DNA of 64,000 nt from Streptomyces californicus. GTDB lineage: Bacteria > Actinomycetota > Actinomycetes > Streptomycetales > Streptomycetaceae. How positions within the stretch are numbered: position 1 is the stretch's first letter; every line of letters starts with the position of its first letter. The DNA is taken from contig NZ_JNZZ01000007.1 in NCBI RefSeq assembly GCF_000717645.1, positions 62,001 to 126,000 on the forward strand, written 5' to 3'. The position numbers and the translations under genes are program-made. The notes under the pieces were generated by a model. It was not told the DNA's origin and did not search any database. It was given only the letters and a program-made list of their open reading frames with translations. Positions 1 through 8,189 of the stretch are shown piece by piece.

Positions 1-2343
<2,343 letters not shown>

Positions 2344-2344
<1 letters not shown>

Positions 2345-2381
2345 GGCGCGCGTCCGGCGGATCCCGACCGGGCGCGCGCCC
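2344..2381 (+). terminator. Hairpin after argH
   Basis: Arms GGGCGCGCG (2344-2352) and CGCGCGCCC (2373-2381) form a 9-bp stem starting at the last base of the argH stop codon. The 20-nt loop (2353-2372) is exactly one copy of a dispersed intergenic motif that recurs at 8247 and 50596. Confidence 0.55.
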
Positions 2382-2470
2382 GGCTCGGAGGCGCACCGGA
2401 TGGGCGAAGGGTGGCGCGGGCCGCGTTCACCTGGGTAGGAGTATCCGAAACCCGACCCGAGGAGCCCGCG

Positions 2471-3442
2471 ATGCCCTTCGCCGCCCTGGCCGCCGCGACG
2501 ACCCCGACCGCCCACATCGGACTGGGCCTGGCCGCCGTCGGGAGGCCCGGCTACATCAACCTCCACCGCGACCGGGACCTCCCCGCCGACCGCGACCCCG
2601 ACGCCCTGCGCGCCCGCACCCACGAACTGCTGGACGCGGCCTACGCCCAGGGCGTCCGGTACGTCGACACGGCCCGCTCCTACGGCCGCGCCGAGGAGTT
2701 CCTCGCGGAGTGGCTGAACGCCCGGCCCGCCTTCACCGACCTCGTCGTCGGCTCCAAATGGGGCTACACCTACACCGCCGACTGGAGCACGGACGCCGAG
2801 CGGCACGAGGTCAAGGACCACAGCCTCGCCGCCTTCGAGCGCCAGTACGCCGAGACCCGGGAACTCCTCGGCGACCGGCTCAGCCTGTACCAGGTCCACT
2901 CCGTCACCCCGGACAGCCCGGCGCTCGCCGACAAGGAACTGCTCCACCGCCTCGCCGCCCTGGCCGCCGACGGCGTCACCGTCGGCCTCTCCACCAGCGG
3001 CCCCGCCCAGGCCGACGCGATCCGCGCGGCCCTCGCCGTCACGGTCGACGGCGAACCCCTCTTCCGTACGTTGCAGGCCACCTACAACGCCCTGGAGACC
3101 TCGGCGGCGCCCGCCCTCGCCGAGGCCCACGACGCCGGGCTCACCGTGATCGTCAAGGAGGGCATGGCCAACGGCCGCCTCGCCGGGGAGGAGGCCCCCG
3201 CCGTCTTCCAGGAGATCGCCGCCGACGCGGGGGTGGGCGGCGACGCGGTGGCCCTCGCGCTGGTCCTGCACCAGCCCTGGGCGGGGGTGGTGCTCTCCGG
3301 CGCCGCGACGGCAGCCCAGCTCTCCGGCAACCTGCACGCGGCCGTCGTCGACCTGGACGAGGAGCAGCGCGCGGGCCTAGACGCCCTGGTGGAGGAGCCG
3401 GAGGCGTACTGGCGCCACCGCGCGGGCCTGCCTTGGCACTGA
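2471..3442 (+). CDS. Aldo/keto reductase family oxidoreductase
   Basis: This 323-residue TIM-barrel NAD(P)H-dependent oxidoreductase has the AKR catalytic tetrad in order: Asp66 and Tyr71 (YVDTARSYG), Lys96 (VGSKWGY) and His143 (LYQVHSV). The ATG at 2471 has GAGGAG six bases upstream. The physiological substrate cannot be read from the sequence. Similar proteins are usually annotated as general carbonyl reductases. It follows argH by 126 bp but probably has its own promoter, because a hairpin ends argH. The end of the gene is part of a 23-bp tandem duplication that also copies the stop codon region. Confidence 0.85.
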   Translation: MPFAALAAATTPTAHIGLGLAAVGRPGYINLHRDRDLPADRDPDALRARTHELLDAAYAQGVRYVDTARSYGRAEEFLAEWLNARPAFTDLVVGSKWGYTYTADWSTDAERHEVKDHSLAAFERQYAETRELLGDRLSLYQVHSVTPDSPALADKELLHRLAALAADGVTVGLSTSGPAQADAIRAALAVTVDGEPLFRTLQATYNALETSAAPALAEAHDAGLTVIVKEGMANGRLAGEEAPAVFQEIAADAGVGGDAVALALVLHQPWAGVVLSGAATAAQLSGNLHAAVVDLDEEQRAGLDALVEEPEAYWRHRAGLPWH

Positions 3443-3579: not shown

Positions 3580-5745
3580 TCAGGCGCTCGTGAGGACCAC
3601 GAGCTCCCGGGTCGCCCGGGTCATCGCCACGTACCGGTCCACCGCCCCCGCGACGCCCCCGCCGAACTCCTCCGGACCGACCAGCACGACCAGGTCGAAC
3701 TCCAGCCCCTTCGACAGCTCCGGGGTCAGCGACCGCACCCGGGGCGTCGCCGGGAACGCGGGCGCGCCGATGACGCAGGCGGTCCCCTCGTCGTGCGCGG
3801 CGAGCCACCGCGCCACGACCGCCTCCAGCTCCTCGGTACGGCCGTGGGCGACGGGGACGCCGCTGCTGCGGACGGAGACCGGCACGTTGGCGTCCGGGAG
3901 CACGGCCCGGACGACCGGCGCGGCCTCCGCCATGATCTCCTCCGGCGTCCGGTAGTTGATGGTGAGGGAGGCCAGGGTGATCCGGTCGAGACCCACCCGC
4001 TCCAGCCGCTCCCGCCACGACTCCGGGAACCCGTGCCGGGCCTGCGCCCGGTCCCCGACGACGGTGAAGCTCCGGGACGGGCACCGCTGGATCAGCATCT
4101 GCCACTGGGCGTCGGTCAGCTCCTGCGCCTCGTCCACGACGATGTGCGCGAACGGCCCGGCCAGGAGGTCCGGCTCCACCCCGCTCGGCCGGTCGGCGGT
4201 GGCCAGCGTCTCCCGCAGATCCGCGCCGCGCAGCATCACCAGCGCGCCCTCGCCGTCCGCGTCCGCGTCGGCCAGCGTCTCGTCCGCGAGCAGGCTCTCG
4301 ACGACCCGGTCCATCTGCTCCCGCTCGGCTGCCGCCGCCGCCTCGTGGCGACGGCGGCGCCGGGACGCCTCCGGGTCCCCGAGCCGCTGCCGCGCCGCGT
4401 CCAGGATCGGCAGGTCGGACTCGGTCCACGCCCGCGCGTCCGCCCGCTGCAACCGCCGCACCTCCTCCCTGCTCAGCCACGGGGCGCAGGTGCGCAGATA
4501 GGCGGGTACGGACCAGAGGTCACCGACCAGGTCGGCCGCCTCGATCAGCGGCCAGGCGCGGTCGAGGAGGGCGGTCAGCTCCCGGTTCCCCCGGAGCGAG
4601 GCGCGCAGTCGCTCCTCGGGCGCGTCGCCGTCGTGCTTGTCCACGAGGATCGCGATCAGCTCGTCCCGGATCTGGTCGCGTGCCTCGTTGTGGGGGGTGC
4701 CGGGCTCGGCCGCCCCGAACGCGGCGGCCCAGTCGGCGGGGCCCAGCCAGATGTCGGACCAGTGGGTCTCCACCCGTACGCCCTCGGCGGGCGGCTCCTC
4801 GTAGAACCGGACCGCCGCCTCGACGGCCCCCACCAGCTCCGCCGACGCCTTGAGCCGCGCCACCTCCGGATCGGTCTCGTCCCCGGCCGTCGCCCCCTCC
4901 GCGACCAGGTCCCGCAGGGTGCACGTCCGCACGCCCTCCTCCCCGAGGCTGGGCAGCACATCGGCGACGTACCCGAGATAGGGCTCGTGCGGGCCGACGA
5001 ACAGCACGCCGCCCCGGCGGTGGGACAGGCGCGGGTCGGCGTACAGGAGGTAGGCGGAGCGGTGCAGGGCCACGACGGTCTTCCCTGTGCCCGGCCCGCC
5101 GTCCACGACGAGCGTGCCCCGGGAGCCCGCCCGGATGACGGCGTCCTGGTCGGCCTGGATGGTGCCCAGCACGTCGCGCATCCGGGGCGAGCGGGTCGAG
5201 CCGAGGCTCGCGATGAACGCGGACTGGTCGTCCAGCGCCGCGTGCCCGGCGAAGGCGTCCGGGGCGTACACCTCGTCCCAGTAGTCGCTGACCCGTCCGC
5301 CGGTCCAGCGGTAGCGGCGGCGGCCGGCCAGACCCATCGGGTCGGCGTGGGTGGCCCCGAAGAAAGGCTCGGCGGCGGGGGAGCGCCAGTCGACCAGCAG
5401 CCGGCGGCCCGAGCTGTCGGTCAGGCCGAGCCGTCCCACGTACAGCGGGCCGGAGCCGTCGGCGGGGTCCATCCGCCCGAGGCACAGGTCCAGGCCGAAC
5501 CGGCGCAGGGCGCGGAGCCGGGCGGTCAGCCGGTGGATCTCCACGTCCCGGTCCATCGCCTGCCGGCTCGCCCCGCCGGGCGCCCGGCGCTCGGCGTCCA
5601 GCCGGTCGGTCAGCTCCGCGACCGACTCCTCCAGGCAGCGGGCGATGTCGGCGAAGTGCCGTTCGTCGTCGGCGATCAGCGCCGGGTCGGCCTTGGCGGA
5701 GAGGCGGTCGGGAAGGTCGAACGCATGGGTGGTCAGGGGGTTCAC
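3580..5745 (-). CDS. helR: HelD/HelR-type RNA polymerase-associated UvrD-like ATPase
   Basis: This 721-residue superfamily 1 ATPase has Walker A GGPGTGKT (about 216-223), Walker B DEAQEL (about 537), a Q-motif-like NYRTPEEI (about 597) and the C-terminal SKGLEFD and YVAMTRAT motifs. The N-terminal 90 residues are charged and helical, as in the HelD arm that enters the RNA polymerase secondary channel. HelD proteins release stalled RNA polymerase. The actinobacterial class called HelR also dislodges rifamycins and gives rifampicin tolerance. The gene lies behind a palindrome resembling the rifamycin-associated element (5819-5847), which supports the HelR subtype. Start GTG 5745 was chosen because the longer ATG form would begin inside that palindrome. 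The next gene upstream, tetR, is divergent. Confidence 0.85.
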   Translation of the reverse strand: MNPLTTHAFDLPDRLSAKADPALIADDERHFADIARCLEESVAELTDRLDAERRAPGGASRQAMDRDVEIHRLTARLRALRRFGLDLCLGRMDPADGSGPLYVGRLGLTDSSGRRLLVDWRSPAAEPFFGATHADPMGLAGRRRYRWTGGRVSDYWDEVYAPDAFAGHAALDDQSAFIASLGSTRSPRMRDVLGTIQADQDAVIRAGSRGTLVVDGGPGTGKTVVALHRSAYLLYADPRLSHRRGGVLFVGPHEPYLGYVADVLPSLGEEGVRTCTLRDLVAEGATAGDETDPEVARLKASAELVGAVEAAVRFYEEPPAEGVRVETHWSDIWLGPADWAAAFGAAEPGTPHNEARDQIRDELIAILVDKHDGDAPEERLRASLRGNRELTALLDRAWPLIEAADLVGDLWSVPAYLRTCAPWLSREEVRRLQRADARAWTESDLPILDAARQRLGDPEASRRRRRHEAAAAAEREQMDRVVESLLADETLADADADGEGALVMLRGADLRETLATADRPSGVEPDLLAGPFAHIVVDEAQELTDAQWQMLIQRCPSRSFTVVGDRAQARHGFPESWRERLERVGLDRITLASLTINYRTPEEIMAEAAPVVRAVLPDANVPVSVRSSGVPVAHGRTEELEAVVARWLAAHDEGTACVIGAPAFPATPRVRSLTPELSKGLEFDLVVLVGPEEFGGGVAGAVDRYVAMTRATRELVVLTSA

Positions 5746-5818
5746 GTCGGCGGTTCCGATCTGCGGGAGTGCGGTGGGCGGCGTCCCGGCCCGGCTACGG
5801 CGGACGATTCTGCGGCAG

Positions 5819-5847
5819 ATGGGGGGCCTTGCCGCAAGACCCCCCAT
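5819..5847 (-). promoter_or_regulatory. 29-bp palindrome resembling the rifamycin-associated element (RAE)
   Basis: Symmetric about base 5833: arms ATGGGGGG and CCCCCCAT, then CTTGC and GCAAG, with one mismatched pair and one central base. On the helR sense strand the core reads CTTGCGGCAAGGCCCC. As I recall it, the RAE found upstream of rifamycin-inactivating genes in actinomycetes is a palindrome with this core. It lies 74-102 bp upstream of the chosen helR start. A possible -10 (TATAG, 5851-5855 on the minus strand) abuts it. RAE identity rests on memory, not alignment. Confidence 0.75.
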
Positions 5848-6059
5848 GCGCTATAAGTTGAGAGTGGCGAGGAGGGGATTCACCTCCGGCCACTTTTCTC
5901 TTTCCGGCCCCTCTCGGGGCCCTTTCTCTTTCCCGCAGGCTTCCTGCGGCTTTCCCGTTCTCCTTCCCGCGGCCCCTGTCGTGGTCCGCGCGCCCTCGCG
6001 CTCCCCTCCCGTCCCGACGCGTACGCCGGCTCATGGTGACGCCGCTTCCGACCCCTCGA
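5848..6059. other. Intergenic region between helR and tetR
   Basis: There is no convincing gene. The plus strand is unusually pyrimidine-rich (runs of TTTCTCTTTCC and similar). Two small perfect hairpins stand out: GGCCCC/GGGGCC with a TCTC loop (5906-5921) and CCGCAGG/CCTGCGG with a 3-nt loop (5933-5949). Either could lie in a long helR leader on the minus strand. Confidence 0.5.
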
Positions 6060-6077
6060 TGAGACATTCATGTCTCA
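6060..6077. promoter_or_regulatory. Probable TetR operator
   Basis: An 18-bp perfect inverted repeat, TGAGACAT-TC-ATGTCTCA, lies 19 bp before the tetR start. A related half-site (GTCTCAT) overlaps the start codon itself at 6092-6098. Position and symmetry fit autorepression of the tetR-MFS operon. Confidence 0.75.
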
Positions 6078-6096
6078 CATGGTCTATGGTCGTCTC

Positions 6097-6648
6097 ATGA
6101 CTCTCGACCGTGAGCAGGTGCTGCGCAGCGCCGCCGCCCTGCTGTCCCGCAAATCGACCGCCACCATGGACGAGGTCGCCAGGGCGGCCGGTATCGGGCG
6201 GGCCACCCTCCACCGGCACTTCGCCGGGCGCGACGCGCTGGTGAAGGCCCTGGAGAGCCTCGGCATCCAGGAGTTCGAGGCGGCCCTTGACGCCGCCCGG
6301 CTCGACGAGGGCACCTCCGAGGAGGCGCTGCGCCGCCTCATCGCGGCCGTCGAGCCCAGCGCGGGCCTGATGTCCTTCCTGGTCAACGAGAACCAGCTCT
6401 TCGAGGGCGACGAGGTCGACGAGGGCTGGAACCGGGCCGACGCCCGGGTCTCCGCCTTCTTCCGCCGCGGCCAGGAACGCGGCGAATTCCGTATCGACCT
6501 GACCCCCGCCTGGCTGACCGAGGCCCTCTACGGGCTCGTCGGCACCGCGGCCTGGTCCGTCCAGGCGGGCCGGGTCGCCGCACAGGACTTCCAACACATG
6601 ATCGTCGAGTTGCTGCTCGGCGGAGCACGCCGGAGCGTGGAGCAATGA
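6097..6648 (+). CDS. TetR/AcrR-family transcriptional regulator
   Basis: This 183-residue regulator has the N-terminal helix-turn-helix of TetR repressors (TMDEVARAAGIGRATLHRHF, about residues 24-43) and a helical C-terminal ligand domain. An ATG at 6070 is also in frame, but it would lie inside the palindromic operator, so ATG 6097 is preferred. The stop overlaps the start of the MFS transporter by four bases (ATGA), so the two are translationally coupled. The regulator most likely represses this operon until a toxic ligand binds. The ligand cannot be predicted. Confidence 0.9.
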   Translation: MTLDREQVLRSAAALLSRKSTATMDEVARAAGIGRATLHRHFAGRDALVKALESLGIQEFEAALDAARLDEGTSEEALRRLIAAVEPSAGLMSFLVNENQLFEGDEVDEGWNRADARVSAFFRRGQERGEFRIDLTPAWLTEALYGLVGTAAWSVQAGRVAAQDFQHMIVELLLGGARRSVEQ

Positions 6649-8189
6649 CCAGGACCGACCAGAACGCGCACACCACGGACGAGGTCCGCCGCCCGGGGCG
6701 GTGGATCGCGCTCGCGGTCCTCGTCCTCGCGGTGCTGCTGGTGGCCGTGGACGCCACCGTCCTCGGCCTCGCCACCCCGTTCCTCAGCGAGGACCTGAAG
6801 CCCACCGGAACCCAGCTGCTCTGGATCGGTGACGTCTACTCCTTCGTCATCGCCGGTCTGCTCGTCTCGATGGGCAGCCTCGGCGACCGCATCGGCCGCA
6901 AGAAGCTGCTGCTGGTCGGCGCCGTCGCGTTCGGCGCGGTCTCCGTGCTCAACGCGTACGCCACCACGCCCGAGATGATGATCGTCGCGCGGGCGCTCCT
7001 CGGTGTCGCCGGCGCCACCCTGATGCCGTCGACCCTCGCCCTGATCCGCAACCTCTTCCACGACCCGCGCGAGCGCAGCCTCGCCATCGGGATCTGGGGC
7101 GCGATGGCCTCGGCGGGCGCCGCCGTCGGCCCGGTGGTCGGTGGTTTCCTGCTCGAACACTTCTGGTGGGGCTCGGTCTTCCTCATCAACCTGCCCGTGA
7201 TGGCCGTCCTCGTCGTCGTCGGCGTCAAGCTGATCCCCGAGTCGAAGAACCCGGCCCCCGGTCCCTGGGACATGCCCAGCGTCGGGCTCTCCCTGGTCGG
7301 CATGTTCGGCGTCGTGTACGCCATCAAGGAGATGGCCTCGCACGGCGCGGGCTGGGACTCGATCGCGGCCGCGGTCGTCGGCCTCGCCGCGCTGACCTGG
7401 TTCGTCCGGCGGCAACTGCGGCTGCCCGCGCCCCTGCTGGACATGCGGCTCTTCCACCACCGGGGCTTCTCCGGCGCGGTCCTCGCCGACCTGCTGACCA
7501 TCCTCGGCCTGTCGGGCCTCGTCTTCTTCCTCTCCCAGTTCCTCCAACTGGTGCAGGGCCGCGGGCCGCTGGAGGCCGGACTCGCCGAACTGCCGGCCGC
7601 CATCGGCGCGGTGACCGCCGGTCTGCTGGCCGGTCTCGCCGCCCGCCGTTTCTCGGTCCGCTCCGTCGTCACCGGCGGCCTCGCCGCGGTCGGACTGGCG
7701 CTGGGCAGTGTGACCCTGCTCGACGAGCACACCGACTACCCGCTGCTCGGCTCCATGCTGCTGGTCGTCGGGCTCGGCGCGGGCTTCGCCTTCACCGTCA
7801 CCGCCGACGTGATCCTCTCCAGCGTGCCGAAGGAGCAGGCGGGCTCAGCCTCCGCCGTCTCCGAGACGGCGTACGAACTCGGCGCGGCCCTCGGCATCGC
7901 CGTGCTCGGCTCCATCGTCACCGGCGTCTACCGGGGCTTCCCGACCCCGTCCGGCATCCCCGCCGACGTGGAGGCGGCCGCCCACGAGTCCCTGGGCGGG
8001 GCGGTCGAATCCGCCGCCGCCCTGCCCGCCGCCCAGGCGGGGCCGCTCGTCTCGGCCGCCCAGGATGCGTTCGTCGAGGGGCTGCGCTCCGCCGCGGGCG
8101 TCGGCGCCGCGGTGCTGCTGGCGGCGGCCGTCGCCGCCTGGTTCCTGCTGCGGGGCCAGAAGCTGGAGGACTCCGTCGAGCACCCGTGA
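6645..8189 (+). CDS. MFS drug-efflux transporter, DHA2 (14-TM) family
   Basis: This 514-residue membrane protein has about 14 hydrophobic segments and the MFS motif A (GSLGDRIGRKK, about residues 76-86) after TM2. The second half contains the typical PAAIGAVTAG motif region. Length and topology fit the DHA2 proton-drug antiporters (SmvA/QacA-like), which export cationic or hydrophobic toxins. It is translationally coupled to the TetR gene by an ATGA overlap. A strong 18-bp hairpin follows the stop. Confidence 0.9.
   Translation: MTRTDQNAHTTDEVRRPGRWIALAVLVLAVLLVAVDATVLGLATPFLSEDLKPTGTQLLWIGDVYSFVIAGLLVSMGSLGDRIGRKKLLLVGAVAFGAVSVLNAYATTPEMMIVARALLGVAGATLMPSTLALIRNLFHDPRERSLAIGIWGAMASAGAAVGPVVGGFLLEHFWWGSVFLINLPVMAVLVVVGVKLIPESKNPAPGPWDMPSVGLSLVGMFGVVYAIKEMASHGAGWDSIAAAVVGLAALTWFVRRQLRLPAPLLDMRLFHHRGFSGAVLADLLTILGLSGLVFFLSQFLQLVQGRGPLEAGLAELPAAIGAVTAGLLAGLAARRFSVRSVVTGGLAAVGLALGSVTLLDEHTDYPLLGSMLLVVGLGAGFAFTVTADVILSSVPKEQAGSASAVSETAYELGAALGIAVLGSIVTGVYRGFPTPSGIPADVEAAAHESLGGAVESAAALPAAQAGPLVSAAQDAFVEGLRSAAGVGAAVLLAAAVAAWFLLRGQKLEDSVEHP

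What the first reader, a model, noticed from the sequence alone, without database searches (positions are those of the whole stretch)
5745..5847. HelR-like RNA polymerase ATPase behind a rifamycin-associated-element-like palindrome
The minus-strand gene at 3580-5745 is a HelD-type ATPase, and 74 bases upstream of its start lies a 29-bp palindrome with core CTTGCGGCAAGGCCCC. As I recall, the RAE that precedes rifamycin-inactivating genes has this core. A HelD gene with an RAE matches the known HelR rifamycin-protection system. This suggests a rifamycin-inducible RNA polymerase rescue module in this strain, apart from any drug-inactivating enzyme.
Basis: partly seen in the sequence, partly recalled or inferred. 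Interest (0 to 1): 0.75.

Follow-up and report, generated by a model that had tools for sequence, protein, structure and literature searches.

The report
HelR gene behind two-way rifamycin switch
This actinomycete carries the known rifamycin-protection gene helR behind the known rifamycin-associated element, and comparison with relatives shows that this element is the middle of a larger two-way promoter whose backward arm often runs straight into a stop signal, which makes the unsolved question of how these bacteria sense the drug testable.

Summary
In detail: window 3580-5745 (-) encodes HelR (NCBIfam NF041254, 1257 bits, cutoff 750) behind a 29-bp palindrome with core CTTGCGGCAAG. HelR behind an RAE is a known kind. 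The strain is not without an inactivating enzyme: its only other full RAE precedes a rifamycin phosphotransferase.

New, as far as the held literature shows, is the anatomy of the RAE. The palindrome is flanked at exactly equal distances by two outward -10-like elements (CANAAT towards the gene, TANGTT away from it), each 19 bp from a TTG inside the palindrome: in 42 of 42 RAE-bearing HelR orthologues picked without using these bases. Searching for the two -10s alone finds the palindrome core in 109 of 113 hits. The backward promoter has a conserved GG at its predicted start, and a hairpin arm begins exactly there in 45 of 114 sites (swap control 3.4) and 31 of 59 in a second set (2.6); so about half the sites show none.

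I infer that polymerase dwelling at the backward promoter holds helR down and rifamycin breaks the hold. Plain occlusion cannot give induction; dwell plus eviction can. A transcription-factor sensor is a strong rival.

The parts
3580..5745 (-). helR, 721-aa class II HelD/HelR ATPase, GTG start
   Evidence: NF041254 motor_HelR 1257 bits, cutoff 750; DWR at residue 119, GGPGTGKT at 216, VVDEAQEL at 536; PDB relative M. smegmatis HelD 6yxu_H, 358 bits
5819..5847 (.). RAE palindrome, core 5828-5838, centre 5833
   Evidence: second copy in the genome before Rph
5832..5837 (-). -35-like TTGCGG of the sense promoter S, inside the palindrome
   Evidence: TTG/CAA kept in the core variants seen
5807..5812 (-). 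-10-like CAGAAT of S, 19-bp spacer; +1 predicted near 5800
   Evidence: A +22 99%, T +26 98% in 115 oriented sites; 42 of 42
5829..5834 (+). -35-like TTGCCG of the backward promoter A, overlapping the S -35
5854..5859 (+). -10-like TAAGTT of A, 19-bp spacer
   Evidence: sense A -26 and T -22 both 100% in 115 oriented sites; 42 of 42
5866..5867 (+). predicted A start, GG
   Evidence: sense C at -33 and -34 95% and 96% in 115 sites; GG in 57 of 59
5866..5903 (+). imperfect hairpin beginning at the predicted A start, then ACTTTTCTCTTT
   Evidence: fold -14.9 kcal/mol, z -1.8, 12 of 200 shuffles as good: weak in this copy
5906..5931 (+). second terminator-like hairpin GGCCCC-TCTC-GGGGCC with T-rich tail, before the tetR gene at 6070
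   Evidence: two overlapping hits in 5700-6080; shuffle mean 0.4; both hairpins together z -2.38

Best explanation
The locus is a rifamycin-protection gene (helR) under a genuine RAE, and the RAE is the core of a divergent two-promoter switch. Shown by sequence comparison: the palindrome holds two overlapping -35-like TTG motifs facing opposite ways; two outward -10-like elements stand at identical fixed distances; the backward promoter A has a conserved GG at its predicted start; in 39-53% of sites a hairpin arm begins at that base. Inferred: A is a real promoter making a very short RNA; RNA polymerase cannot sit on A and on the gene promoter S at once; without drug the polymerase dwells on A, so helR is low; rifamycin hits polymerase during its long dwell on A, the arrested enzyme is then removed (HelD-type eviction is the natural candidate), and free polymerase uses S; HelR then strips rifamycin from polymerase, as published for its relatives. 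Odds: divergent two-promoter anatomy about 0.85; RNA polymerase as the sensor through A about 0.45-0.5.
For: Family. Unbiased test: 51 HelR orthologues from 148 genomes; 42 of 51 have the palindrome at 15 of 19 or better, and all 42 have all four -10 marker bases, while none of the 9 without it has all four. Converse test: the two -10s alone, with 36 unspecified bases between, in 246 genomes: 113 hits in 82 genomes, 109 with CTTGNNNCAAG at the exact centre (my count of the printed rows), 0 with the backward-read control. Orientation given by the -10s agrees with gene direction: 112 of 114 loci have a HelR, Rox, Rgt, Rph, Arr or MFS gene downstream; the other 2 hold only 74 and 100 bases of downstream DNA. 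Hairpin arms at the predicted A start: 45 of 114, swap control 3.4 (max 9), 0 of 114 at the mirror position on the sense side; second set 31 of 59, swap 2.6, sense 2. Terminator score >=30: 37 of 113, sense side 0, shuffles 0.3. The Rph copy in the same genome gives GGCAAGGAG-UUCU-CUCCUUGCC-UUUU from the predicted start, z -4.1. Precedent for polymerase as sensor: B. subtilis helD, where an rpoB H482Y strain loses induction (PMC12802891, section 48), and M. smegmatis rpoB-rpoC promoters I/II (PMC6181997, passages). Dwell plus eviction gave up to 58-fold induction in simulation, without eviction none.
Against: No transcript was measured; A is inferred from sequence. 69 of 114 and 28 of 59 sites lack the hairpin-arm match; Arr sites show it least (0 of 8; 1 of 8 at score >=30); the window copy is weak (z -1.8). 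Plain mutual exclusion, even with eviction of drug-bound polymerase from the pool, gave no induction in 200,000 random parameter sets; the dwell model gave more than 2-fold in only 2.8% of 100,000 sets, so the mechanism needs extra, unproven assumptions. The GGGG/CCCC flanks are more conserved than two -35 boxes need, which favours a bound protein. In B. subtilis, bringing the two promoters so close that they clash abolished induction. The five dropped sites include one (L076) with an A spacer one base shorter (by eye) and one (L112) lacking the marks.
Confidence: 0.5

Rival explanations
1. A dedicated dimeric transcription factor that senses rifamycin binds the palindrome and controls S; A is a second target of the same symmetric site, and the hairpin insulates the upstream neighbour from it.
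For: The reviews suppose an unknown factor (PMC10719064 section 9; PMC12802891 passage). The core and the GGGG flank are nearly invariant beyond the TTG/CAA of the -35s. Plain polymerase competition fails.
Against: If A were a by-product it should decay, yet its -10 marker bases are at least as conserved as those of S (100%/100% against 99%/98%). A symmetric site cannot by itself tell S from A. I did not look for a linked or co-occurring regulator gene.
Confidence: 0.35
2. The flanking AT-rich bases and the inverted repeat are outer protein-binding sites, not a promoter and a terminator.
For: They are symmetric about the palindrome; an inverted repeat can be an operator; many sites lack a hairpin.
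Against: The marker bases are the A and T that are the hallmark of -10 hexamers (recalled), on outward strands, each 19 bp from TTG; the hairpin arms change together (13 distinct paired 6-mers; own arm 45 of 114, swapped 3.4) and are followed by T-rich tails, mean 4.2 T in 8, as RNA terminators are.
Confidence: 0.1
3. Convergent-promoter interference as in B. subtilis helD.
For: Published for a HelD gene responding to the same drug; a sense promoter P1 upstream of the RAE is reported for M. smegmatis helD.
Against: Here the two conserved promoters point away from each other. I saw no conserved sense -10 at the place P1 would need in the alignments (judged by eye, not by a dedicated search).
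Confidence: 0.05

Closest known systems
HelR of Streptomyces venezuelae (SVEN_6029) and Mycobacterium abscessus (MAB_3189c)
   Same: HelR family model; RAE upstream; class II HelD motifs
   Different: Nothing decisive. The tip of the primary-channel loop reads ADADADGEG where most relatives read DDDGEG or similar. Rifampicin phenotype untested. Reviews seen as passages; the original papers were not read.
Rifamycin-associated element (RAE), described as a 19-bp palindrome
   Same: Same core, same set of downstream genes (rox, rgt, rph, arr, helR)
   Different: Here shown to be the centre of a divergent promoter pair with fixed geometry, and in many sites a backward terminator. The reviews describe a palindrome overlapping the -35 of the downstream sense promoter P2 (which fits S), and call the mechanism unresolved.
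B. subtilis helD/pps dual-promoter rifampicin alarm (PMC12802891)
   Same: A gene promoter paired with an antisense promoter, rifamycin-responsive, upstream of HelD
   Different: B. subtilis promoters converge with 39 bp between the starts; RAE promoters diverge and share the -35 region
M. smegmatis rpoB-rpoC promoters I and II (PMC6181997)
   Same: One promoter holds down another until rifampicin stops it
   Different: Tandem promoters with a required inter-promoter region; effect about 1.6-fold (passages)

Membership tests
HelR (NF041254) | passes the curated family cutoff | tested here: met
   1257.4 bits, cutoff 750
HelR (NF041254) | HelD signature and ATPase motifs | tested here: met
   DWR, GGPGTGKT, VVDEAQEL, NYRTP, KGLEFD all present in the window protein
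HelR (NF041254) | acidic tip of the primary-channel loop | tested here: inconclusive
   M. smegmatis E484 aligns with E489, D485 falls in a gap (alignment; I counted the mycobacterial numbering by hand); acidic stretch present but not identical in relatives
HelR (NF041254) | deletion lowers rifampicin tolerance; frees polymerase of the drug | not testable with these tools
   needs experiment
RAE | palindromic core upstream of a rifamycin-resistance gene | tested here: met
   112 of 114 keyed loci from an exact-core scan
RAE | needed for rifamycin induction | not testable with these tools
   published for a relative (half-RAE deletion, section 9 of PMC10719064)
B. subtilis-type convergent dual promoter | convergent promoters with starts about 39 bp apart | tested here: not met
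   the two conserved -10 elements face outward
Intrinsic terminator behind A | GC-rich hairpin plus T-rich tail at the start of the transcript | tested here: inconclusive
   strong over the set and in the Rph copy, weak first hairpin in the window copy, a second hairpin follows

The most novel reading that the evidence does not exclude
The RAE is a factor-free rifamycin sensor: two promoters fused back to back through one palindrome, where the polymerase dwelling on the backward, quickly terminated promoter is both the repressor of the resistance gene and the drug receptor.
Probability: 0.4. Interest if true: 0.85.

Novelty: new variant of a known kind. Interest (0 to 1): 0.6.

Why it matters
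How the RAE responds to rifamycins is stated as unresolved in reviews of 2022 and 2026. A fixed divergent promoter pair, with a backward start and stop, turns that into a few direct tests, would link actinobacterial sensing to the dual-promoter logic reported for Bacillus helD, and gives a search signature independent of the palindrome that also found RAE modules before transporter genes.

Tried and rejected
Plain occlusion of S by A, with or without eviction of drug-bound polymerase: rejected by steady-state calculation, 0 of 200,000 sets induced. Convergent interference: no conserved convergent promoter seen (by eye). A known RNA family: no Rfam match up to E = 1 in window 5400-6200. Standard sigma-70 promoter scan (16-18 bp spacers): 0 in 5700-6080, as expected with 19-bp spacers, so that scan neither supports nor refutes A and S. 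Open frame extended to the ATG at 5847: rejected as start. A backward promoter in the gene leader (CAGGTT, the complement of AACCTG): considered and dropped, because its would-be -10 marker bases are poorly conserved. Published RAE alignments: the 2014 PNAS paper and Hurst-Hess 2022 are not held; Surette 2022 was not looked up; their content here comes from reviews or recall.

Full report
Observation. The minus-strand gene 3580-5745 is HelR: NF041254 at 1257 bits against a cutoff of 750, with DWR and ATPase motifs and M. smegmatis HelD as the best solved relative (6yxu_H). The palindrome is at 5819-5847, core 5828-5838. In the 7.78-Mb genome (window GC 73%; probably a Streptomyces, inferred, no name given) CTTGCGGCAAGNCCCC occurs twice: here, and before a 906-aa gene that passes the model of rifamycin-inactivating phosphotransferase, 1559 bits, cutoff 999. 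A protein search with HelR gave six matches in the genome, which I read as HelR and three weaker HelD-like genes, two of them matched in two pieces; the only two full RAE cores are the HelR and Rph ones.

The RAE is larger than its palindrome. They hold 120 sites; 115 could be oriented by their flanks, five were dropped (L042, L068, L073: not RAE-like; L076, L112: borderline). With 0 as centre and the gene to the right, sense A -26, T -22, A +22 and T +26 are at 100, 100, 99 and 98% (the orientation score used these bases, so these figures are partly circular; without orientation the same four are at 98, 98, 96 and 96%, with the window genome's two sites included). These are the second and last bases of outward hexamers TANGTT and CANAAT, each 19 bp from a TTG in the palindrome. 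Orientation agrees with gene direction: of 114 keyed loci (L037 holds two sites keyed as one) HelR 47, Rox 34, Rgt 13, Rph 9, Arr 8, MFS 1, none 2; both of these hold too little downstream DNA (the reference proteins for five of the six classes come from five of these loci). Five loci also had a family hit on the other strand on the far side of the RAE.

Two tests do not depend on that choice. First, 51 HelR orthologues (E <= 1e-150) in 148 genomes of the class, 26 of 81 genera: 42 have the palindrome at 15 of 19 or better within 700 bp, and all 42 have all four marker bases; of the other 9, none has. In at least two of these nine (G051, G057) a module lies about 1.4 kb upstream on the same strand (positions). 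Second, the two -10s alone with 36 free bases between (<= 1 mismatch) gave 113 hits in 82 of 246 genomes; by my count of the printed rows 109 have CTTGNNNCAAG exactly at the centre; the backward-read control gave 0. In the printed core variants (CTTGCCACAAG, CTTGTGGCAAG, CTTGCGTCAAG) TTG and CAA stay and only the middle three bases change.

The backward arm starts and often stops. Seven bases beyond the A -10, the predicted +1 and +2, the sense strand has C at 95 and 96% of 115 sites: a GG start; in the second set 57 of 59. A 6-base arm starting at that base finds its exact complement within 36 bases in 45 of 114 sites; 6-mers swapped from other sites give 3.4 on average (max 9); other start positions on that strand give 0 to 7, except 32 three bases on, inside the same stem; the mirror position on the gene side gives 0 of 114. 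An unrelated repeat (CCGCAG with CTGCGG) shows up on the gene side at +18 in 16 of 115. Tails after the stem average 4.2 T in 8. A terminator score of 30 or more is reached by 37 of 113 backward arms, 0 gene-side arms and 0.3 expected from shuffles; at 25 or more, 49, 0 and 1.3. By gene at 30 or more: Rph 7 of 9, MFS 1 of 1, Rgt 5 of 13, Rox 11 of 33, HelR 12 of 48, Arr 1 of 8, unclassed 0 of 1. Of 60 regions fetched, 59 carry the core: 31 have the backward arm, 2 a gene-side arm, swap 2.6; one of the 59 repeats a module of the first set. So about half of all sites show no hairpin by this test. In the Rph copy of this genome the hairpin is strong (z -4.1, none of 200 shuffles as good); in the HelR copy the first is weak (z -1.8) and a second follows at 5906-5921.

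Mechanism. HelR action (stripping rifamycin from polymerase) is taken from published relatives (passages of PMC10719064 and PMC8655204). For the switch, two steps are inferred: A fires, and polymerase on A excludes S, since the -35s overlap. Plain exclusion cannot give induction, because drug-free polymerase on A and S falls together (0 of 200,000 parameter sets). If the drug hits polymerase during a long dwell on A and the arrested enzyme is evicted, S can rise, up to 58-fold, in a small part of parameter space (above 2-fold in 2.8% of 100,000 sets, above 10-fold in 0.3%; none without eviction). This is an existence proof only. The near-invariant GGGG flank is not explained by two -35s and favours a bound protein. 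I give polymerase-as-sensor 0.45-0.5 and a transcription-factor sensor 0.35.

Known or new. HelR with RAE is known. The reviews describe the RAE as a 19-bp palindrome overlapping the -35 of the downstream sense promoter, which agrees with S, and state that the mechanism is open. Full-text searches in the held library showed, in the listings and passages I saw, no description of a backward promoter or terminator at the RAE; subscription papers and preprints are not held, so this is not proof of novelty.

Noticed in passing
L055, L121, L122, L206 and others, about +65 to +115 from the RAE centre: Leaders of helR, rox and rph genes often carry the 5' end of rgt (28 or more of 47 bases): HelR 18 of 66, Rox 6 of 54, Rph 6 of 21; control stretch 0 of 165. 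Some of these (probably L194, L204) seem to have rgt itself between the RAE and helR; the rest look like stubs left by loss of rgt.
   Followed up: partly
L236 and L237: An RAE module stands before an ABC transporter pair in two genomes; in L236 the ATPase passes the drrA model (325.7 bits, cutoff 312.45), the membrane protein is below the drrB cutoff: candidate rifamycin efflux.
   Followed up: partly
L034:229-1794: An RAE module before a DHA2-type MFS transporter in Actinoplanes aureus; 212 bits to efflux_EmrB, below its cutoff of 230.
   Followed up: partly
L238, gene side of the RAE: The leader runs into MIDVIVAGGGPTG, the start of rox, followed by unrelated sequence: looks like a broken rox (by eye).
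   Followed up: no
RAE leaders at about +45 to +55: CCTGCGGAAAT is matched at 9 or more of 11 bases in leaders of four gene classes (HelR 21 of 48, Rox 14 of 34, Rph 7 of 9, Rgt 6 of 13; Arr 0 of 8); 7 of 570 in shuffles. Role unknown.
   Followed up: partly
window 6070-8189 (+): A TetR-type regulator and a DHA2-type MFS transporter lie divergent to helR on the A side; the backward hairpins would insulate them.
   Followed up: no
window 722-3337 (-): An 871-aa open frame downstream of helR has no NCBIfam or Pfam match at E <= 0.001.
   Followed up: no
L079, L092: RAE modules on contigs labelled Chloroflexi MAG (Rph) and Xanthomonadaceae MAG (Arr); either wider spread or binning errors.
   Followed up: no
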